Shown here: positions 15,800-30,904 of the stretch, piece by piece
Numbering within the stretch: position 1 is the stretch's first letter
How the letters are laid out: every line of letters begins with the position of its first letter
NCBI GenBank assembly: GCA_947073045.1
Contig: CAMTJU010000013.1
Location: forward strand, 1-38,984
DNA length: 38,984 bases
Reading direction: 5' to 3'
Source: an uncultured Clostridia bacterium
GTDB taxonomy: Bacteria; Bacillota; Clostridia; Lachnospirales; CAMVHY01
Translations under genes and position numbers: made by a program
Notes under the pieces: generated by a model
What the model saw: the letters and a program-made list of their open reading frames with translations, nothing else
Databases searched by the model: none
Told to the model about the DNA's origin: nothing

Positions 15800-17031
15800 T
15801 GAACTGACACCAAAAAGTTAGACAAGGTTATATAAAAAAATCTATTAAGCAACCGAAAGGGCTTGCAGACTGTGAATAGCAGGAGGCAAGCCCTTAAGTT
15901 TTGCCTTAATACATCGATTATTGTAGTAGTCAAGATATTCTATTAATTCCTGCTTAAAATGTTCAATGGATTCAAACTTTTGTAAGTGGAATATTTCACT
16001 TTTCAGCAAACCAAAAAAGTTTTCTATCACTGCATTGTCCAGACAGTTGCCTTTGCGGCTCATACTCTGTCGAATACCTTTTTTATGGAGTATCTGTCGG
16101 TATTGTTCATGCTGATATTGGCAGCCTTGGTCGGAATGAAGAATGAGGTTAGTATCATTTGGAACTGTTGCAAATGTTTTATTTAGCCTAGATATTACCA
16201 TGCTCAATACAGGATGTTCTAAAATAGTATAGCTTACCAAGTTACTGCTATGTAGATCAAAGATAGACGACAGATATAACTTTTCTCCAAATGGGCTGAA
16301 CTCTGTTACATCGGTAACCCACTTTTAGTTTGGCTTTTCTGTTTTGAAATCTCGGTTTAGAAGATTTGGAGCAATTTTCCCCACATCACCTTTGTAAGAA
16401 TGGTATTTTTTCATCCTGATATGACACACAAGACCTAATTGATTCATGAGCTTTTAGACAATCTTATGATTCAAGTAAATATTTTGGTTGTGCAGCTCAA
16501 CTGTGATTCTACGGTAGCCATACCGTCCTTTGTTTTTGTAATAGATTGTCGTAATCTGTACCTTGACTAATTTATACTTGTCTGATTTATTCATTTGTTT
16601 TAAGTGATAGTAAAAGGTTGCACAGGCTAATTGAGCAATTGAAAAAAGTATTTTCAGTAATCAAGTCTTGCAAGTTTTTTAGGTATTCATTTTCTGCTCT
16701 TAATCTCTGCACTTATGCCAAGAGATCTTCATCTACTTCTTTTGGAAATTCTCGTGACGATCTGCGCTGGCTCTGGCTCGTCCACGCGCTCTATTGCCAA
16801 ACATTCTATTCCTTGTGTCAGATATGTCCTCTTCTACTTCTGTATACTTTCATGTATTATGCCATACTTTTGTTCTGCTTCATGGTATGTCATGCTTTCT
16901 TCCAATATCTGTTCTACCACCATTTCTTTATATTCTGCCGTGTATACCTTGTTTCGTTTTCTTTTTGACATAATTTAACACCCCATTTGTTTTTAGTATC
17001 CCATACTGTCTAACAAATGGGGTGCTGTTCA
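15800..17031 (-). mobile_element. Full-length but inactivated IS3-family (IS150-like) insertion sequence
   Basis: The element is 1,232 bp between imperfect terminal inverted repeats of about 25 bp: TGAACTGACACC...GTTAGACA at 15800 and, reversed, TGAACAGCACCCC...GTTAGACA ending at 17031. The minus strand encodes OrfA from 16978 (MSKRKRNKVYTAEYKEMV, an HTH-type start) and OrfB. Both carry several in-frame stops and shifts, for example TAG in OrfA near 16845 and TAA just before KWVTDVTEF. The last open part (15845-16240) retains HSDQG and VIENFFG; the three DDE acidic residues are all still encoded, in TDV, SDQ and IEN. No clear target duplication flanks it; CAA on both sides is possible. It sits in a terminator loop. 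Confidence 0.92.
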
Positions 17032-21777: not shown

Positions 21778-22590
21778 TGAACAACACTCAATTTGTTAGA
21801 CAGTATGATATACTAAAAAATAAAAAAACAAATGGGGTGTTAAATTATGTCAAAAAGAAAACAAAACAATAGGTACACAGCAGAATATAAATAAATGGTG
21901 GTAAAACAGACAGGTATTGGAAAAAAGCATGTCATGCCATAAAGCAGAACAAAAGTATGGCATAACACATGGAAATATCCAGAAATGGAAAAGGATATAT
22001 CTGACACAAGGAATAGAAGGTTTGGCAATAGATCAACATGTATGTGATGCACAGATCGTCTACGAGAATTTCCGAAAGCAGAAAATGACTACCTAAAAAA
22101 CTTACAAGACTTGATTACTGAAAATACTTTTTTCAATCGCTCAATTATCTTGTGCAACCTTTTACTATCACTTAAAACAAATGAATAAACCAGACAAGTA
22201 TAAATTAGTCAAGGTATAGATTACAACAATCTATCACGAAAACAAAGGACGATATTGCTACCGTCAAATCACATCTGAGCTGCACAACCGAAATATTTAT
22301 CTAAACCATAAAACTTTCCAAAAACTCATGAAGAAATTAGGATTAGCATGTCGCATCAGGATGAAAAAATATCATTTTTACAAAGGTGAGCAGGTAAAAT
22401 TGATCCAAATCTTTTAAACCGAGATTTCAAAACAGAAAAGTCAAACCAAAACTGGGTCACTGATGTAATAGAATTCAATTTGTTTAAAGAAAAGCTATAT
22501 TTGTCGCCTATCATTGTTCTACATATCAGCAACTTGGTAAGCTACACCATTTCAGAGCTTCCTGTATTGAGCATGGTAATATCTATGCCA
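21778..22590 (+). mobile_element. 5' half of an IS3-family element (partner half at 36512-36893)
   Basis: It begins with the same inverted repeat as the copy at 15800-17031 (TGAACAACACTC...GTTAGACAGTATG) and runs through OrfA (ATGTCAAAAAGAAAAC at 21847) into OrfB up to the codons for LPVLSMVIS. All frames carry stops. Homology ends abruptly near 22586-22590, where a kinase-like reading frame takes over. The missing 3' part is the fragment at 36512-36893, which begins at the equivalent base. On its left is AAAAAATCCCAAGC, a terminator arm. The element and the gene fused to it come from a reciprocal exchange. Confidence 0.88.
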
Positions 22591-23731
22591 AATTAGGGTT
22601 TGGAGAATATTTTATTCATACAGAATTTGCAATTGACAATTCAGGTAAATCTGTTTTTATGAATAAAGCAAAAGGTCAACAAGGCTCGGAAGTTTTGTTA
22701 TATAAACCAACACAAAAAGCAGAATTAAGTCAATTTTTAGATTCAAATGCAAACATTGCATTTGAATTTAATGAAAAAGATGAAAATGGTAATCCAAAAT
22801 TTGAAATTAAAAATGGTAAAGTCAGTGATTTAGTTAAAAATCCTATATGTATAACACAAGAAACTCAATTAAGCGCATTAGCAATTGGAATTGTTGATTT
22901 TATTTGTATTCAACCAGATAGACATTGGAAAAATTTTTTTATTGATAAGAATGGAAAAATGACTGGTATAGATAATGATGCAGTCGGTATTGTTGATTAT
23001 GGTGAAGAAGTAACAAAAGAAATTATGAAAGTTAAAGTGCCTTTTGTAACATCTCAAATTAAAGAAAAAATTATAAATTTATATGACAATAAAGATATGC
23101 TTTTAAATTTTTTAAGAGGTAAAATGAATATAGGTATGCAGGGAAATAAAGTTATTTCAGAAATGGAAAAATGTTTAGATATGTTATATAATTACATTAA
23201 AAGTAATAATTGTCCAATTTGTGACTTCAAATATAAAGATGATTTTATAAATCATTTCTTACTAGCTCACAACAATTTTTCACAATATTGTACTAAAGTA
23301 GGTCGTTCTAATGGTTTTATTCTTTCTGAATCAAATCCAATAGCTCTTATAATTCACAATTCTATAGGAGAAACTTTTAATAGATTTGCTGGCTGTCATT
23401 ATTAAAAATATCAGACTCAATAATTGACGAATTATCAAAAAAAAGTATAGAGATAAATGAATTAGTCAAAAGTGTAGTACAAAAGGTTTCATGCAAGGAA
23501 ATTGATCGTTTAATGCTTATATTTCAAATAAATTGTGAAGATGCAATTCAAATAGTAATAAATCCAATAATCGAAAGCATTCCATATTTTAATAAATATA
23601 GTCAAAGTAAAGCAGAACGTACATATGAGAAAGTTTGTAGAAAAATTGACGCTTTATTCCCAGAATCACATCTTTTTGATTTCTCTCACACAGCAAATCA
23701 ACTACAACACCAAAATTATCAAGAACGTTAA
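22587..23731 (+). pseudogene. C-terminal half of a kinase-like gene, fused to an IS fragment and frameshifted
   Basis: From 22587 the frame reads AKLGFGEYFIHTEFAID and runs without a break to 23405; a start at 22659 within it is unlikely to be genuine. It includes CIQPDRHWKNFFID followed by GIDNDAVG, which look like the catalytic loop (D-R-H-x-x-N) and metal-binding Asp of HipA/PI3K-PI4K-like kinase folds. Near 23395-23402 the frame shifts: a second frame, open from 23384 to 23731, continues with LKISDSIIDELSKKSIEINELV and ends FPESHLFDFSHTANQLQHQ. One missing or extra base would rejoin them. The N-terminal half lies at 36893-37894 on the other strand. The normal role is unknown; it is not functional in this form. 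Confidence 0.72.
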
Positions 23732-23941: not shown

Positions 23942-23953
23942 TAATCCGGATTA
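23942..23953. promoter_or_regulatory. Perfect 12-bp palindrome (TAATCCGGATTA), possible operator
   Basis: The exact palindrome TAATCCGGATTA lies 24 nt before the first DUF1659-like start, just upstream of AAAGGAGG. A TATAAA overlaps its right edge. I cannot place a convincing -35. A regulator binding here could control the four-gene operon. The stretch 23790-23941 is AT-rich without other visible features. Confidence 0.45.
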
Positions 23954-23977
23954 TAAAAAACTAAAGGAGGAATACCA

Positions 23978-24187
23978 ATGGCAGTAACAAATACAATAAA
24001 AGCAACAAAATTTCAATTAAAATATGCAAACAATAAAGGTTCTTATACTTTTTCTGACTTAAAAAATTCAGGCACTACAGATGATAAAATATTAGCTACT
24101 GCACAAGCTTTTGCCTCAGTGCAAGAATCAAGTACAGAAAAAATTTATAAGCTTATTGACAACAAATTAGAAAAAACTCAAGCATAA
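23978..24187 (+). CDS. DUF1659-like small protein (copy 1)
   Basis: This 69-residue soluble protein has no signal peptide, TM or cysteine. Its general pattern (MAVTNTIKATKFQLKY..., a short Gly-rich turn, then a helix FASVQESSTEKIYKLID) matches small DUF1659-type proteins that sit next to DUF2922 genes in Firmicutes. Function is unknown for the family. A consensus AAAGGAGG ribosome-binding site suggests strong translation. It heads a four-gene tandem with strong ribosome-binding sites before each start. Confidence 0.75.
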   Translation: MAVTNTIKATKFQLKYANNKGSYTFSDLKNSGTTDDKILATAQAFASVQESSTEKIYKLIDNKLEKTQA

Positions 24188-24201
24188 GGAGGATAATAAA
24201 A

Positions 24202-24429
24202 ATGAATAAAAATTATTATGAATTTGTTTTTGTAAGTGATCAGGGTAAAAATATAAATTTAAAGATACCAAATGCTATTGAAACTTTCGATACTGACCAA
24301 TTTGCAGAAGATATGGATTTAATAATTGCATCAAATGTAATTTTAACTTCTGCTGGAAAACCTGTAGCAAAAAGATTCGTTAAATATATTGAACCTAAAA
24401 TTATTGAAGTTACAATCCAAAATAATTAA
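24202..24429 (+). CDS. DUF2922-like small protein (copy 1)
   Basis: This 75-residue protein has the DUF2922 shape: YEFVFVSDQGKNINLKIPNA (two strands around a G-K turn, then the IPNA motif), a helical DTDQFAEDMDLIIASNVI, and a final strand KYIEPKIIEVTI. No signal peptide or cysteine is present. The function of the family is unknown. It follows the DUF1659-like gene by 14 nt with AAGGAGG upstream. DUF1659 and DUF2922 genes commonly travel as a pair, so a joint role is likely. Confidence 0.78.
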   Translation: MNKNYYEFVFVSDQGKNINLKIPNAIETFDTDQFAEDMDLIIASNVILTSAGKPVAKRFVKYIEPKIIEVTIQNN

Positions 24430-24452
24430 TACAATAAAAGGAGGAAATAAAA

Positions 24453-24644
24453 ATGGCAACATTAAATTTGATAGATACAAAATTGACTTTAAAATTTTCC
24501 GAACAAAGCTATTCAAACAGTAACATAAATAATGCTGCTAGCGACCAAACCATTTACGATTTAGCAGAATTAATGGAAAAATATCAGTTATCAGCACCGA
24601 CTGAAATCGGTAAAACTTTGAAATACGAATTTATAATTAGTTAA
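24453..24644 (+). CDS. DUF1659-like small protein (copy 2)
   Basis: This 63-residue protein (MATLNLIDTKLTLKFSEQSY...) has the same layout as the first gene: an N-terminal strand pair, a helix (DQTIYDLAELMEKYQLSA) and a final strand (KTLKYEFIIS). Sequence similarity to copy 1 is low. The assignment rests mainly on size, pattern and its position before a second DUF2922-like gene. AAAGGAGG lies at ideal spacing. Confidence 0.65.
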   Translation: MATLNLIDTKLTLKFSEQSYSNSNINNAASDQTIYDLAELMEKYQLSAPTEIGKTLKYEFIIS

Positions 24645-24656
24645 GGAGGTTAAAAA

Positions 24657-24896
24657 ATGAATCCTAATTTTAAAATTACTTATAAAACAAGTGATAATGA
24701 AATATTTGAACTTACAATACCTAATGCATTTAATTTTGATCCAGACGTTGCAGAAAATGTTACAAGAGTCAATACAGCTGCTAAAAACATTATGAATGCA
24801 AATGCAATAGAGACAGGCTGCGGAGATTTAAGCAGCATTGAATCAATAGTTTATTGCAAAAATGATGTTACAGTGCACGATTTGGCAAATCTATAA
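24657..24896 (+). CDS. DUF2922-like small protein (copy 2, diverged)
   Basis: This 79-residue protein keeps the opening of copy 1 (FKITYKTSDNEIFELTIPNA, with TIPNA matching KIPNA) and a following helix region (DPDVAENVTRVNTAAKNIM), but the second half differs and contains two cysteines (ETGCGDLSS and VYCKND). It follows copy 2 of the DUF1659-like gene by 12 nt with AAGGAGG upstream. Divergence between the two pairs suggests an old duplication with specialisation. A terminator follows. Confidence 0.65.
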   Translation: MNPNFKITYKTSDNEIFELTIPNAFNFDPDVAENVTRVNTAAKNIMNANAIETGCGDLSSIESIVYCKNDVTVHDLANL

Positions 24897-24928
24897 TTTA
24901 AATCATCTAAAATTTATCACATAAGGAA

Positions 24929-24957
24929 AATCTCGGCAAATGCCGGGATTTTTTTTA
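24929..24957 (+). terminator. Rho-independent terminator of the DUF1659/DUF2922 operon
   Basis: AAATCTCGGCA, loop AA, TGCCGGGATTTTTTTT, a stable stem of about 10 bp with a G-T pair and a T-run. Confidence 0.88.
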
Positions 24958-25097: not shown

Positions 25098-26162
25098 TTA
25101 ATTAATTACTTGCAAATCTTTTGGATATTTATTTAAAATCTCGTATCCATTCTCGGTTACCAAAACTAAATCCTCTATCCTGACTCCCAATTTATCTATT
25201 AAATATATACCTGGCTCAATTGAAAAAATCATTCCAGGCTTTAACAAATCATAATTGTCTTGTGATACAGCCCCGAATTCATGACACTCGATTCCGATTG
25301 AATGACCAGTTCGATGAATAAAGTTTTTGGCATATCCATTATCTTCAATGAAATTTCGCGCCGCTAAATCTATTTGGCTAAATTTTGCGTCCGGCTTGAC
25401 CTCATTTATTGCCTTTTGGTTTGCATGCAAAACTATATCATAAATTTTTTTGTCAAAGTCTGACGCATATTTATAAAAAAATGTGCGAGTCATATCTGAG
25501 CAATAATTATCTTTTATAAATCCCATGTCAATTACAATACAATCGCCTTCTTTTAATTTTGTATCATTAGGTACGTGATGCGGCTCGGCAGCATTTTTAC
25601 CAAATGCTATTATCGGGTCAAATGAAAATGCATCAAGCTCCAATTCTTTTTTTATCGATTTGAGTATTTCTAATAATTCTAATTCAGTTTGATTGGCCTT
25701 AATATTTTTTACAAGAAGAGACATTGCTTCATCATTAAGGCGCGAAGATTCACGCATTAAATTAATTTCGTCTTCTGTTTTTACCAGGCGCACATATTCC
25801 AAAATATCGCTTACTAAATAATTAGCGTTAGTTGATTTAATAAGCGGTAGTAAAAATTTTGCAGGAAAGTTTTTATCAATTAAGACTGTTTCATTTTTTA
25901 TTGTACCTGATAAAATGCTAACGGGGTCATCATCATCTGAGTAATAAACAACTTCAACATTAGGAATATTTTTCATATCAAATAATTTGTTTACAAAAAG
26001 TTTTTGCGTATTATCTGTGCTGTTTATATACATTACGTAAAGTCTTTCGCCGGGTTCAATTAAATTTCCTGTCAAATAGAAAATGGCGAAAGGGTCGCAA
26101 ATCAAAAGCTGCGAACAATTTTTTTGATTCATTACATTATTTACACGTTCAATTTTATTCAT
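25098..26162 (-). CDS. Xaa-Pro peptidase (M24B, PepP/PepQ-like)
   Basis: This is a cytosolic metallopeptidase (354 aa) that cleaves peptides before Pro. An N-terminal creatinase-like domain (about 1-125) precedes the pita-bread catalytic domain. The metal ligands are visible: Asp in VIDMGFI, Asp in YCSDMTRTF, His in HRTGHSIG, Glu in FSIEPGIYL and Glu in VRIEDLVLV. The frame continues upstream to 26216, but AAAGGAGTGG directly before ATG 26162 fixes the start. It overlaps the 3' end of the upstream permease gene by 8 nt, so the two form a likely peptide/amino-acid utilisation operon. Confidence 0.94.
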   Translation of the reverse strand: MNKIERVNNVMNQKNCSQLLICDPFAIFYLTGNLIEPGERLYVMYINSTDNTQKLFVNKLFDMKNIPNVEVVYYSDDDDPVSILSGTIKNETVLIDKNFPAKFLLPLIKSTNANYLVSDILEYVRLVKTEDEINLMRESSRLNDEAMSLLVKNIKANQTELELLEILKSIKKELELDAFSFDPIIAFGKNAAEPHHVPNDTKLKEGDCIVIDMGFIKDNYCSDMTRTFFYKYASDFDKKIYDIVLHANQKAINEVKPDAKFSQIDLAARNFIEDNGYAKNFIHRTGHSIGIECHEFGAVSQDNYDLLKPGMIFSIEPGIYLIDKLGVRIEDLVLVTENGYEILNKYPKDLQVIN

Positions 26163-27555
26163 TATTGCCACTCCTTTTTTCATAGTTATTCCATAGCCAA
26201 AATCCCATAGATACAAACAAAATTGAACCGCCGATTAATTCTATTTCATACCATATATTTGCCATTAATGTGTCCATTATAGGAACAAGAGATAAAACTA
26301 CACCAGCTATAGTAACTATTAGTGTCATGTATGAAATCCAAATGCAGGTTGAATTTTTTTTAGCCATTGAAAATTGTTTGTCTACATTTGGGTGCGTCTT
26401 CTTTAATTTTATATATGCAAAAATCAGCATAACGTACGGAAATAATGAAACTAAAGACGTCATAGTGACTAATATATTGTAAATTATATCGACACCTGGA
26501 AGAAATTCGGTTAATATCATTATAATTGTCACCAATATAGTTTGAAATAAGACTGCTCTTTCAGGTATGCCATGACTGTTAAGTTTAGTCAATTTCTCAG
26601 GGAATACACCTTCTTTAACTGAGCCAAAAAGCATTTTTATTGCTGAAGCTGTGTATACAATAACGGCGCCAAAAGATGCAAGAGATATTCCAAATGCTAC
26701 AAGCATTACAAGCCATTGGCCAATTCCCCATGAAGATGATATTGTAGCAATTGCATCAAGTAAACCACGTGAAGCTGTAATATCTTTTGGATCGAGAACA
26801 ATAGTCATAGCCAATGAACCAAGTACGTATAAAAGTGAAGTAATTGCAGCGGAAATAATTATTGCTCTGGGAAAATTTTTTCTCGCATCTTCAATTTCTG
26901 TAACAAAATTAGCAGTAATTTCAGCTCCCGAAAGCCCAAACATAATAGTCGATATAGCAATGAGCGAATCAGCATTTATTTTTGGAATAAAATTATGTAA
27001 TGAATAATCAGAAGCAATATTATGTTTACCCAATATAACACCAAAAAATGCAAGCAACATTAAAATTATTGTTGGAATGGTTGAACCAAATGCACCGATA
27101 TTGGTAAAAAATTTCCCAAATGTCATACCTTTTGTAGATATGTAGGATACTATCCAAAAAACTACTAGCGAAAATATGAATATAAATGATTTATTTTGAG
27201 CAAGCTCGGGTTTTCCTATAACAAAAGTGATATTGACGGAAAAGAAAGTAAGAAAAGCAGTATACCAAAAAACTCTGGCAATCCAATTTAGCCATGAAAC
27301 AATAAATCCATATTTTTCACCGTAAGCCTGTTTAACCCATTCATACATACCGCCATCTTTGGGATAAGTAGAGGTTAATTCCGCACACATAAGGGAGATT
27401 GGTACAAAAAATATAAAAGTTATTATAATCCAGGTAGGGATTGCGCCAAGGCCAAGACCAAAACTTGAAGCAGTTGATTTTGCAATCCAGCGTATGCCGT
27501 ACAAAGCAGAAACATTCATAAAAACTAATTCCCATAAACTTATTTTTTTATTCAC
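26155..27555 (-). CDS. APC-superfamily amino acid permease/antiporter
   Basis: This is an integral membrane transporter (466 aa) with about 12 hydrophobic segments. The start LWELVFMNVSALYGIRWIAKS and the loop AELTSTYPKDGGMYEWVKQAYG are typical of the glutamate:GABA antiporter-like branch of the APC family. The conserved TM8-type GAEITANFVTEIEDARKNFPRA and the helix LPYV-type ending are also present. The substrate cannot be read from sequence. GTG at 27555 is chosen because GGAG lies 10 nt before it. Other in-frame codons upstream to 27606 lack a ribosome-binding site. Its 3' end overlaps the peptidase start by 8 nt. Confidence 0.9.
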   Translation of the reverse strand: MNKKISLWELVFMNVSALYGIRWIAKSTASSFGLGLGAIPTWIIITFIFFVPISLMCAELTSTYPKDGGMYEWVKQAYGEKYGFIVSWLNWIARVFWYTAFLTFFSVNITFVIGKPELAQNKSFIFIFSLVVFWIVSYISTKGMTFGKFFTNIGAFGSTIPTIILMLLAFFGVILGKHNIASDYSLHNFIPKINADSLIAISTIMFGLSGAEITANFVTEIEDARKNFPRAIIISAAITSLLYVLGSLAMTIVLDPKDITASRGLLDAIATISSSWGIGQWLVMLVAFGISLASFGAVIVYTASAIKMLFGSVKEGVFPEKLTKLNSHGIPERAVLFQTILVTIIMILTEFLPGVDIIYNILVTMTSLVSLFPYVMLIFAYIKLKKTHPNVDKQFSMAKKNSTCIWISYMTLIVTIAGVVLSLVPIMDTLMANIWYEIELIGGSILFVSMGFWLWNNYEKRSGNNE

Positions 27556-27660
27556 GCAAACAAAACTCCTTTTATATAATATTCTATCAAAGTTAAATTG
27601 TATCACATAAGGCTATTTAAACTCAAAATTTTTTGAAACATTACACAAAGCATAATATAT

Positions 27661-27702: not shown

Positions 27703-28425
27703 TTAATTATTCTTTGGCTCATTTTTTTTAACAGTAATGGAAAGTGTAAAACTAATGACGGATTTAGCACCAGCATCTTTTAAAAACTGTGCACACTTAT
27801 TTATTGTGCTGCCGGTTGTAAATATATCATCTATCAGCATTAAATTTAATCCTTTAACATTTTTTGCACTGAAAGCATTTTCCAAATTATTTTCTCGTTC
27901 ATGAGAATTTAAATGCCACTGTGGTTTTGTATTTTTTATTCTTTTCAAAATATCTGCGCGCATTGGCAAATTCATTTTGCGTGCAATTTCTTTTGCCAAT
28001 ATTTCGGATTGATTAAATCCTCTGTTTCTTCTGCGAATTTTATGTATGGGTACTGCTAAAATATAATCCACATTTTTTATCACATCAAAATTTATTTCAT
28101 GCGCCATAATTTTTCCTAAACCTTTACCAATTGCCGGATGATTTTTGAATTTGAACCTGTGTATCAAATCTTGCATAAGCTCGTCATATACAAACAATGA
28201 ATAATTTTTGTCAAAATAAAAATTTTTCTTCGTGCATATTGAACACAATTTGCCATGCTTAATTGGGCGAGAACATTTTTCACATCTTCTGCCAGTTATG
28301 GTTTTAAATAAATCTTTGCATTCATCGCATAAAAATTTTTTAGAGCCAAACTCAATTATATTGTCACACACAATACATTTTGGCGGATAAATTAAATCTA
28401 AAATAAAATTTATAATAATAATCAT
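27703..28425 (-). CDS. ComF-family phosphoribosyltransferase-like protein
   Basis: ComF-type proteins (240 aa) combine a zinc-binding N-terminus with a phosphoribosyltransferase fold and aid DNA uptake or repair in competent bacteria. Two Cys pairs, CIVCDNI and CDECKDL, are followed by CEKC and CSICTKK. Further on are AVPIHKIRRRNRGFNQSEILAKEIA and the PRPP-loop motif LMLIDDIFTTGST near 195-207. The start is uncertain: ATG at 28425 directly abuts AAAAAAGG, too close to serve as its own site, so a slightly later non-ATG start is possible. It lies 244 nt downstream of recD2 on the same strand. Confidence 0.92.
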   Translation of the reverse strand: MIIIINFILDLIYPPKCIVCDNIIEFGSKKFLCDECKDLFKTITGRRCEKCSRPIKHGKLCSICTKKNFYFDKNYSLFVYDELMQDLIHRFKFKNHPAIGKGLGKIMAHEINFDVIKNVDYILAVPIHKIRRRNRGFNQSEILAKEIARKMNLPMRADILKRIKNTKPQWHLNSHERENNLENAFSAKNVKGLNLMLIDDIFTTGSTINKCAQFLKDAGAKSVISFTLSITVKKNEPKNN

Positions 28426-28486: not shown

Positions 28487-28681
28487 ATGCAAAATCCAAG
28501 CGATTCAAGTACAGATACAATAATAACAAAAAGTATGTCTGAAAAAATGGGAAAAGCTAAAATTGAAGCTAAAAAGTTAGAAATCATGGAAGAAAATAAA
28601 AAAAAATTAAAAGAAGAAACTGGACACGATTATAATACAGGCGCTACAAAATATTTAACATTTAGAAAATCATTTCGTTAA
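28487..28681 (+). CDS. Small charged hypothetical protein
   Basis: This is a 64-residue soluble protein without a signal peptide, cysteine or TM. Residues about 16-46 form a Lys/Glu-rich amphipathic helix (KSMSEKMGKAKIEAKKLEIM and onward). The tail GHDYNTGATKYLTFRKSFR is basic. It has its own promoter and an excellent AGAAGGAGGG ribosome-binding site, so it is very probably expressed. Its last 12 nt overlap the recD2 stop in a convergent tail-to-tail arrangement. It lies on the opposite strand between recD2 and comF. I do not recognise a family. Confidence 0.75.
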   Translation: MQNPSDSSTDTIITKSMSEKMGKAKIEAKKLEIMEENKKKLKEETGHDYNTGATKYLTFRKSFR

Positions 28682-30904
28682 ATCATCTAAAGCTTGAATG
28701 CGGTAATCCAATGCGGAATATCTCTCAAGCTTTTTTTTATTGCCTATCATTGCAAAAATTGTCTGCGGCAATCCTATTATTACTGCCAAATCTTTTGCAC
28801 GCGTCAATGCTGTGTATAATAAATTTCTATTCATCAGCATTGGAGGTCCATTAAATATTGGCAATAAAATTGCTTTGTACTCACTTCCTTGTGATTTATG
28901 AATTGTAATTGCGTATGCAAGATCTAATTCGTCTGCCTGATTGAAATCGTACTCAACATACTTATTTTCATCGAACTTGACTATCATTTTTGAAATTAAT
29001 TTGTCTATGTTTACAATAAATCCCATGTCTCCATTGAAAACGCCAAAGCCATTTGCAATGCAAATACTATTTTCGATGCACTTCCACTCTAATCCATAAT
29101 TATTTTTTATTTGCATAACCTTGTCGCCCTCACGAAATGTATATAATCCAAATGCTCTCTCATTTTTAAACATACTCGGTGGATTGATTTTCTCTTGCAA
29201 TATTTTATTTAAATTAATTGTTCCAAGCTCAGTTTTTTTCATCGGTGTTAATACTTGTATTTCTGTTAAATCATTTGTTTGTAATCTCTTTGGGATTCTG
29301 TCAACAGCCATATCAACTATCGTTTTTATTATTGAATTTGAATCAGCCTTATGGATGAAAAAAAAGTCATTACTTTGTTCTGTTAGATCCAATTTTTCAC
29401 CCTTATTTATTTTGTGCGCATTGACAACGATGGAACTTTTGCCAGCTTGCCTGAAAATTTTATCTAATCTCACCACTTTTATTTTTTCACTCGTTATTAG
29501 ATCTTTTAAAATATTTCCTGCACCTACCGATGGCAATTGATCTACGTCGCCCACCAATATTAATTTTGTATCGAGTGCCGTTGCTTTTAATAAATTATAC
29601 ATAAGTGAAATATCAATCATAGAAGCTTCGTCAACTACAATATAATCAGCTTTAACCGGATCTTCTTCATCGTGTTCAAATTTTTGCATATCATCGTCGC
29701 CTGTAAAATTTATTCCAAGCATTCGGTGAATTGTTTTAGCTTCCATATTTGTTGATTCAGACATTTTTTTTGCAGCACGGCCTGTCGGTGCACAAAGTTC
29801 TATATAAAATCCAAATGCCTTCAAAATTCCAATGACAACTTTCAAAGTTGTAGTTTTACCAGTTCCTGGCCCACCAGTTATAATTGTAATGCCATTTTGA
29901 ATTGATTCGACAACAGCTTTAAATTGATTGTCTGCCAATTCAATTTTATTGTGTATCAAAAATTTATTTATCACAGCGTCAGGAGAAAAATTTAATTTCT
30001 CACTATTTTGATTGAGCATCAATATTTTTTTTGCAATATATTGTTCCATGTAATAATAAATATTTATGTACACAACTGTTTCGTTTTTTATATTTTCGCG
30101 TTTTATGAGATTATTGACTTGCATTTGCAAAATATTTTCTTTTATAGCATCAACGCTTACATTAATTAATTCAGCTGTATTTTCAATCAAAATATTTTCT
30201 GGTAAATACGTATGGCCGTTTGTATCGGCTGCCTGCTTCAAACAAAACTTTATTGCCGATTTAATTCGAAATGGCGAATCTTTCTCAATTCCAACTTTTT
30301 CAGCTATCATATCAGCTTTTTTAAATCCAATTCCCCAGATTTCATCCGTCAATCTATACGGATTTATTTTAATCATGTTAATAGTGTCGTCACCATAACG
30401 TTTTTGAATTTTAGCAATATATACCGGTGTAATATCTAAACTTTGCAGATAAATCATAATATTTCTTGATCGATTCATATCCAAAAATATTTTATTAATA
30501 ACGGCAGCAAATTTTTTATTTATCCCACGAACTTTTGTCAAGCTTTCATAATCATTTTCAATAACATCAAACGTTTTGTCACCAAATATTTTGACAATAC
30601 GTTGTGCAATCTTGGGACCAATTCCTTTTATAATGCCAGACGATAGATATTTTTCAATATTATTTTCAGTTACTGGAATTTTTTTTTCTATGCTGGTTAC
30701 TTTAAATTGTTCACCGTAAGTCGGGTGCACAACAAAATTTCCACTAACACTTATATTTTCATTTTCGTTAATTTGTGCAAAATAACCGGTGCAAATAATT
30801 TCGTGCTTGCCAGTTTGTATCTTAAAGACTGTATAGCCATTTTGCTCACTGCGAAAAACAATGTTTTTAACACTGCCACTGATTTCAATTTTTTCTTTCA
30901 TCAT
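28670..30904 (-). CDS. recD2: RecD2-like ATP-dependent DNA helicase
   Basis: This superfamily 1B 5'-3' DNA helicase (744 aa) of the RecBC-independent RecD2 type acts in DNA repair and replication-fork maintenance. The N-terminal OB-like region (IEISGSVKNIVFRSEQNGYT) and helix-hairpin-helix segments (IKGIGPKIAQRIVKIFG, LTKVRGINKKF) are diagnostic. The helicase core has Walker A GGPGTGKTTT near residue 350, DEASMID (motif II), GDVDQLPSVGAG (motif III), and YAITIHKSQGSEYKA with LLYTALTRAK (motifs V/VI). GGAG lies 10 nt before the ATG. It is followed by comF on the same strand. Confidence 0.96.
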   Translation of the reverse strand: MMKEKIEISGSVKNIVFRSEQNGYTVFKIQTGKHEIICTGYFAQINENENISVSGNFVVHPTYGEQFKVTSIEKKIPVTENNIEKYLSSGIIKGIGPKIAQRIVKIFGDKTFDVIENDYESLTKVRGINKKFAAVINKIFLDMNRSRNIMIYLQSLDITPVYIAKIQKRYGDDTINMIKINPYRLTDEIWGIGFKKADMIAEKVGIEKDSPFRIKSAIKFCLKQAADTNGHTYLPENILIENTAELINVSVDAIKENILQMQVNNLIKRENIKNETVVYINIYYYMEQYIAKKILMLNQNSEKLNFSPDAVINKFLIHNKIELADNQFKAVVESIQNGITIITGGPGTGKTTTLKVVIGILKAFGFYIELCAPTGRAAKKMSESTNMEAKTIHRMLGINFTGDDDMQKFEHDEEDPVKADYIVVDEASMIDISLMYNLLKATALDTKLILVGDVDQLPSVGAGNILKDLITSEKIKVVRLDKIFRQAGKSSIVVNAHKINKGEKLDLTEQSNDFFFIHKADSNSIIKTIVDMAVDRIPKRLQTNDLTEIQVLTPMKKTELGTINLNKILQEKINPPSMFKNERAFGLYTFREGDKVMQIKNNYGLEWKCIENSICIANGFGVFNGDMGFIVNIDKLISKMIVKFDENKYVEYDFNQADELDLAYAITIHKSQGSEYKAILLPIFNGPPMLMNRNLLYTALTRAKDLAVIIGLPQTIFAMIGNKKKLERYSALDYRIQALDDLTK

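What the first reader, a model, noticed from the sequence alone, without database searches (positions are those of the whole stretch)
23942..24957. Tandem DUF1659/DUF2922-like quartet behind a perfect palindrome
Four tiny genes (63-79 aa), each with a near-consensus ribosome-binding site and only 12-23 nt apart, form two pairs of the same kind: DUF1659-like followed by DUF2922-like. The pairs are clearly related in layout but diverged (both DUF2922-like members keep IPNA; the second gains two cysteines). A 12-bp perfect palindrome lies just before the first gene and a strong terminator ends the last. Strong translation signals, no transport or membrane feature, and duplication suggest abundant small proteins that work as heteromers. 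The families have no known function, so this is the best candidate here for an undescribed intact system.
Basis: partly seen in the sequence, partly recalled or inferred. Interest (0 to 1): 0.6.

Follow-up and report, generated by a model that had tools for sequence, protein, structure and literature searches.

The report
Duplicated DUF1659–DUF2922 small-protein operon
Four tiny bacterial genes form a real operon made of two diverged copies of an ancient two-gene module of unknown function; in related bacteria that module travels with a ComK-type regulator, a dedicated sigma factor and a holin-like membrane protein, which gives a first concrete lead to what it does.

Summary
Four intact genes (69, 75, 63 and 79 aa) lie 14, 23 and 12 nt apart, each with an AAGGAGG site, and end in a strong terminator. 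The order is DUF1659, DUF2922, DUF1659, DUF2922; the second pair scores below Pfam cut-offs but clearly matches profiles built here. The 12-bp palindrome is unremarkable: 26 occur in the window, a third of shuffled intergenic sequences have one, and relatives lack it.

The quartet recurs, in the same order, in 23 genomes of one family and one of another. In 291 genomes of the class, 71 of 73 that have either family have both, in a fixed order. The module's usual partners are YvrJ (holin-like) downstream in 40 of 72 loci, a sigma factor near 26 loci, and a ComK-family regulator; 39 of 40 genomes with this regulator have the module. Some copies sit beside holins and cell-wall hydrolases. This genome keeps YvrJ elsewhere but lacks a detectable ComK-like gene.

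Both proteins are predicted as ββαβ folds without a confident structural match. The likeliest role is a heteromeric soluble partner of a small membrane protein in a regulated envelope programme. Partner binding, abundance and function are inferred, not shown.

The parts
23942..23953 (.). 12-bp perfect palindrome TAATCCGGATTA, 24 nt before the first start codon; function not supported
23964..23970 (+). Shine-Dalgarno AAGGAGG of gene 1 (same motif at 24186-24192, 24438-24444, 24643-24649 for genes 2-4)
   Evidence: read from the sequence
23978..24187 (+). gene 1, DUF1659, 69 aa; AF2 ββαβ model, pLDDT 78.7
24202..24429 (+). gene 2, DUF2922, 75 aa; AF2 ββαβ model, pLDDT 90.6; closest to position 2 of the quartets of family f5
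24453..24644 (+). gene 3, DUF1659 (diverged), 63 aa
24657..24896 (+). gene 4, DUF2922 (diverged, two Cys), 79 aa
24922..24957 (+). intrinsic terminator of the operon
27703..28425 (-). ComFC-type phosphoribosyltransferase; part of the metK/recD2/comFC neighbourhood often seen around the module in relatives
   Evidence: relatives
28670..30904 (-). RecD2 helicase; same conserved neighbourhood
   Evidence: relatives

Best explanation
The locus is a four-gene operon holding two diverged copies of an ancient DUF1659-DUF2922 module. SHOWN: operon anatomy, family membership, strict co-inheritance and gene order of the two families, recurrence of the duplicated quartet in other families of the order, and linkage of the module in relatives to YvrJ, a sigma-70-type factor and a ComK-family regulator. 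PREDICTED: both proteins are small ββαβ proteins of the same topology. INFERRED: a DUF1659 and a DUF2922 subunit bind each other, the duplication gives two specialised pairs, and the complex is a cytoplasmic partner that times or gates a small holin-like membrane protein (YvrJ) during a programme switched on by the sigma factor and the ComK-like regulator, for regulated opening of the envelope (release or uptake). In this reduced genome the operon stands apart from the linked regulators, while a YvrJ gene remains elsewhere (contig 11, 463-609).
For: Of 291 class genomes 72 have DUF2922, 72 have DUF1659, 71 have both. DUF1659 lies upstream of DUF2922 in 71 of 71 loci, with YvrJ downstream on the same strand in 40 of 72. 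YvrJ: 51 of 55 genomes co-occur. The YvrJ of this genome matches PHROG 4898 'holin', E 3.9e-7. ComK-like: Pfam ComK matches 12 of 21 members, best 1.1e-6; 39 of 40 genomes also have the module; inside family f44 both are present in the same 4 of 14 genomes, Fisher p 0.001. Sigma factor near 26 loci and ComK-like near 20, against 1 and 0 at >3.5 kb. Holins or peptidoglycan hydrolases lie near 8 loci, none at >3.5 kb (10 vs 0 genes, p 0.003). Plasmid and other extra copies carry BhlA holin plus Amidase_2, Amidase_3, M15, or Phage_holin_4_1 plus M15. SigO-RsoA drives yvrJ in B. subtilis (PMC8103513). ββαβ models; DUF1659 and DUF2922 profiles align over ββα, pairwise P 4e-4, probability 34%.
Against: Family f5 (the main holder of quartets) has no YvrJ in the 23 quartet-bearing genomes scanned, so the pair does not strictly need it. 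This genome has no detectable ComK-like gene. In f5/f11 several copies sit by flagellar genes instead. No interface was computed; the hhalign probability is low; YvrJ's holin-likeness is by profile only. Co-occurrence p-values ignore shared descent except for the f44 comparison.
Confidence: 0.35

Rival explanations
1. The pair is an effector of a ComK-controlled, competence-like programme that acts on DNA, recombination or transcription and not on the membrane; YvrJ is only a co-regulated neighbour.
For: 39 of 40 co-occurrence with the ComK-like regulator; recurring recD2-comFC neighbourhood, also in this window; weak top fold matches are nucleic-acid proteins or inhibitors of DNA/RNA enzymes.
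Against: ComEC is near universal in the class, so it does not separate carriers from non-carriers. Median net charge of both families is slightly negative. Fold matches are all below Z 5. recD2-comFC may be chromosomal synteny only.
Confidence: 0.25
2. The pair regulates the neighbouring sigma factor (co-sigma or anti-sigma).
For: A sigma-70-type gene lies near 26 loci, mostly upstream on the same strand; T7 gp2, an RNA-polymerase inhibitor, is among the weak fold matches.
Against: Most loci, and the quartets examined, lack an adjacent sigma factor; Z 3.7 is no evidence of kinship.
Confidence: 0.12
3. The proteins are abundant histone-like DNA binders similar in fold to phi29 protein p6.
For: p6 structures rank second for the gene 1 model (Z 4.4, rmsd 3.5, 59 aligned) and first for the gene 2 model (Z 3.9, rmsd 3.0, 51 aligned); strong ribosome-binding sites.
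Against: Z is inside the tied background; no sequence match; mostly slightly acidic proteins.
Confidence: 0.08
4. In the quartet lineages the module has been re-used for a motility-linked role, and this operon is a leftover of it.
For: Copies next to flagellin, fliS, fliD-like or motAB-like genes in f5 and f11.
Against: This genome has no flagellin, yet all four genes are intact. The ancestral place near comFC may explain flagellar neighbours by synteny (own knowledge of the B. subtilis comF-flg-hag order).
Confidence: 0.1

Closest known systems
Pfam DUF1659 (PF07872) and DUF2922 (PF11148)
   Same: All four proteins belong to these two families, and the pair order is the usual one.
   Different: Here the pair is tandemly duplicated and the second pair is diverged below Pfam cut-offs.
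sigma factor - DUF1659 - DUF2922 - YvrJ cassette (with ComK-like regulator) of Clostridia and Bacilli
   Same: Same two-gene core in the same order; YvrJ is present in this genome.
   Different: Here the core is doubled, YvrJ is on another contig, no ComK-like gene was found, and there is no adjacent sigma factor.
DUF1659-DUF2922 quartets of family f5 and of G011 (f11)
   Same: Same four-gene layout; window gene 2 matches their position 2 best, 42.7 vs 26.6 bits.
   Different: Window genes 1 and 3 both resemble f5 position 3 and not the diverged position 1; f5 lacks YvrJ.
B. subtilis SigO-RsoA regulon with yvrJ
   Same: A sigma-factor-driven yvrJ (PMC8103513).
   Different: B. subtilis has neither DUF1659 nor DUF2922 (control genomes).
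Holin-endolysin lysis cassettes (BhlA/UviB, Phage_holin_4_1 with amidase or M15)
   Same: Some copies of the module sit inside such cassettes.
   Different: The window has no holin or hydrolase beside the quartet; no relative was found in INPHARED phages or IMG/VR contigs.

Membership tests
DUF1659 (PF07872) | match over the curated gathering score | tested here: met
   gene 1 met, 30.1 vs 24.1 bits; gene 3 below the cut-off at 19.2 bits but E 2e-14 to the session's profile
DUF2922 (PF11148) | match over the curated gathering score | tested here: met
   gene 2 met, 42.1 vs 25.5 bits; gene 4 below the cut-off at 22.2 bits but E 5e-14 to the session's profile
sigma-DUF1659-DUF2922-YvrJ cassette | DUF1659 directly upstream of DUF2922, same strand | tested here: met
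sigma-DUF1659-DUF2922-YvrJ cassette | YvrJ directly downstream | tested here: not met
   YvrJ exists in the genome but on contig 11
sigma-DUF1659-DUF2922-YvrJ cassette | ComK-family regulator in the genome | tested here: not met
   no match to profile A5; 33 of 72 module carriers in the class sample also lack it
conserved duplicated quartet of the order | two DUF1659-DUF2922 pairs in tandem in one operon | tested here: met
holin-endolysin lysis cassette | holin and peptidoglycan hydrolase genes in the operon | tested here: not met
   neighbours at 22659-23405 and 25098-27606 are a kinase-like fragment, an M24 peptidase and an amino-acid permease
phi29 p6-like DNA-binding proteins | same fold with a clear structural match | tested here: inconclusive
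   Z 3.9-4.4 within tied background
heteromeric DUF1659-DUF2922 complex | physical interface between the two proteins | not testable with these tools

The most novel reading that the evidence does not exclude
DUF1659 and DUF2922 are the two soluble subunits of a widespread, host-encoded envelope-opening device of Bacillota, built around the holin-like YvrJ and switched on by a ComK-family activator and its own sigma factor outside Bacillales. The quartet here is a duplicated, regulator-free version in which two specialised pairs coexist.
Probability: 0.2. Interest if true: 0.75.

Novelty: new variant of a known kind. Interest (0 to 1): 0.45.

Why it matters
Two Pfam families of unknown function, each in about a quarter of the class genomes sampled, turn out to be inherited together with a ComK-family regulator, a sigma factor and a holin-like protein. 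In the literature held here, ComK was called exclusive to Bacillales (PMC1524751, 2006). If the link is functional, it makes testable whether many Clostridia run a ComK-controlled programme and what its output is. The duplicated quartet is a natural experiment in how the pair specialises.

Tried and rejected
Palindrome as a shared operator: not conserved in f5/f11 quartets; near-copies elsewhere in the genome uninformative. Phage origin: tblastn of DUF2922 and YvrJ against INPHARED and two viral-contig scans found no relative, although PHROGs has small families matching both. Solved structures: none by sequence for gene 2; fold searches gave nothing above Z 5 or with E under 0.001; that absence does not show a new fold. 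ComEC as a competence marker: near universal, so uninformative. NCBIfam: no model for the four proteins or the ComK-like family. Literature: DUF1659 is named in one held paper and DUF2922 in none; among five held papers that mention YvrJ none appears by title to be a study of it. The first genome contigs alignment was too diverse to search.

Full report
WHAT IS THERE. Each has AAGGAGG 7-9 nt before its ATG. A stem-loop followed by a T run (24922-24957, -19.5 kcal/mol, z -8.95) ends the operon. The simple scanner missed it, probably because the A/T tracts extend the stem. Pfam puts gene 1 in DUF1659 and gene 2 in DUF2922 over threshold, and genes 3 and 4 in the same two families just below threshold. 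The palindrome TAATCCGGATTA is real and its exact form is unique in the assembly, but perfect 12-bp palindromes are common in this 30% GC window (26 of them; 32% of shuffled intergenics have one, 2.5% with a G+C centre) and related quartets do not share it.

WHO ELSE HAS IT. In 291 genomes drawn evenly from the class, 72 have DUF2922, 72 have DUF1659 and 71 have both. Record titles of contigs with identical lengths indicate Clostridia-like Bacillota, which is an inference. In 71 of 71 loci DUF1659 is upstream of DUF2922 on the same strand; the median gap over 125 distinct pairs is 41 nt. Thermotoga maritima is the only control genome with both families. The quartet is not private to this genome: two DUF2922 genes a few hundred bases apart, with a DUF1659 between them in the loci that were read, occur in 23 genomes of family f5, and a quartet lies next to fliS in G011 of family f11. 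Window gene 2 is closest to position 2 of the f5 quartets (42.7 against 26.6 bits). Gene 4 cannot be assigned, and genes 1 and 3 both match f5 position 3, position 1 being diverged in f5. A single ancestral duplication is therefore plausible for the DUF2922 half but not proven for the rest. Some f5 genomes carry many dispersed two-gene copies, up to 12 DUF2922 hits.

WHAT IT TRAVELS WITH. (i) YvrJ, a ~48-residue protein, lies downstream on the same strand in 40 of 72 loci, and 51 of 55 YvrJ genomes have the module. (ii) A sigma-70-type factor (Pfam HTH_16 / Sigma70_r4_2) lies within 2.5 kb at 26 loci against 1 at more than 3.5 kb. (iii) A ~190-residue protein lies within 2.5 kb at 20 loci against 0 farther away. 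It is a ComK-family member: 12 of 21 sequences match Pfam ComK, best E 1.1e-6, including, weakly (E 0.023 on its own), the gene annotated 'hypothetical protein' just upstream of the module on a Parageobacillus plasmid. Genome-wide, 39 of the 40 genomes with this regulator have the module, across 15 families. In family f44 the same 4 of 14 genomes have both, which between-family descent alone cannot explain (Fisher p 0.001). (iv) Peptidoglycan hydrolases and holins lie near 8 loci against none far away. Examples: BhlA holin with an Amidase_2-LysM protein on a Clostridiaceae plasmid, Amidase_3 or M15 peptidase after YvrJ on Bacilli plasmids, and M15 with Phage_holin_4_1 in G308. (v) metK, recD2 and comFC are frequent chromosomal neighbours. 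The window shares the last two at 28670-30904 and 27703-28425, and one f5 quartet does too (L134), so the operon probably sits near its ancestral place.

IN THIS GENOME. YvrJ is present, but alone on contig 11 (463-609; Pfam E 2.3e-16; PHROG 4898 'holin' E 3.9e-7). No ComK-like gene was found and no flagellin; ComEC is present, as in nearly all genomes of the class. Upstream of the quartet is a degraded IS3-type remnant that runs into a truncated ORF; downstream on the other strand are an M24 peptidase and an amino-acid permease. The operon is therefore self-contained and intact in a 1.17 Mb genome in which the usual partners are missing or apart, which argues that the module itself is useful.

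STRUCTURE. AlphaFold2 with 15-16 row alignments gives ββαβ for gene 2 (pLDDT 90.6) and ββαβ for gene 1 (pLDDT 78.7). Profile-profile comparison aligns the ββα part of the two families (pairwise P 4e-4 but probability only 34%), and MAFFT lays the first half of DUF2922 on the N-terminal half of DUF1659. The two families may be ancient paralogues; this is suggestive only. Searches against PDB and viral models gave nothing above background. phi29 p6, the Y-family polymerase little finger, T7 gp2 and p56 recur at Z 3-5, which may reflect only a common arrangement.

HOW IT MOST LIKELY WORKS. The steps shown are anatomy, families, co-inheritance, order, linkage and recurrence of the quartet. The steps inferred are that DUF1659 and DUF2922 bind each other, that the two pairs have specialised, and that the complex is the soluble partner of a small holin-like membrane protein in an envelope programme commanded by a sigma factor and a ComK-like activator in relatives. 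The main weakness is that f5, which has most quartets, has no detectable YvrJ. A purely cytoplasmic role in a ComK-type programme is the strongest rival.

LIMITS. Genomes are a sample and unnamed; the hypergeometric values ignore shared descent; gene calls in the neighbourhood survey were mechanical. Plasmids of one pathogenic species with module copies were deliberately not opened.

Noticed in passing
window 21840-22660 (+) and 22659-23405 (+): Degraded IS3-type transposase with several frame breaks running into the 5' side of an ORF with a weak PI3/4-kinase-like Pfam match (E 0.005); that ORF looks 5'-truncated.
   Followed up: partly
window 15845-16240 (-): Fragment of an IS3-type integrase (rve_2, E 1e-14).
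   Followed up: partly
A5 family, e.g. L196:7512-8072, L193:4553-5209, L092:5081-5608: ComK-family regulators in 40 of 291 class genomes (15 families) and on Bacilli plasmids, not covered by an NCBIfam model; worth a study of its own.
   Followed up: partly
L118, L122, L124, L127, L130, L134 (upstream of f5 quartets): Several f5 quartets seem to share a promoter region with a TCTnAGAC..GTCTnAGA-like repeat upstream of a TATAAT box; judged by eye only.
   Followed up: no
G372 copies, L254-L262: Up to 12 dispersed, very similar two-gene copies of a derived DUF1659-like gene plus DUF2922 in one genome.
   Followed up: partly
L117, L125, L135, L138, L139, L142: Pairs or quartets next to flagellar genes (flagellin, fliS, fliD-like, motAB-like) in families f5 and f11.
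   Followed up: partly
L157 (G000 contig 11) 463-609 (+): Orphan YvrJ gene of the window's own genome with its own ribosome-binding site, near the contig end.
   Followed up: yes
L182:12884-14044: GH25-lysozyme-like gene between recD2 and comFC, downstream of a DUF1659 module.
   Followed up: no
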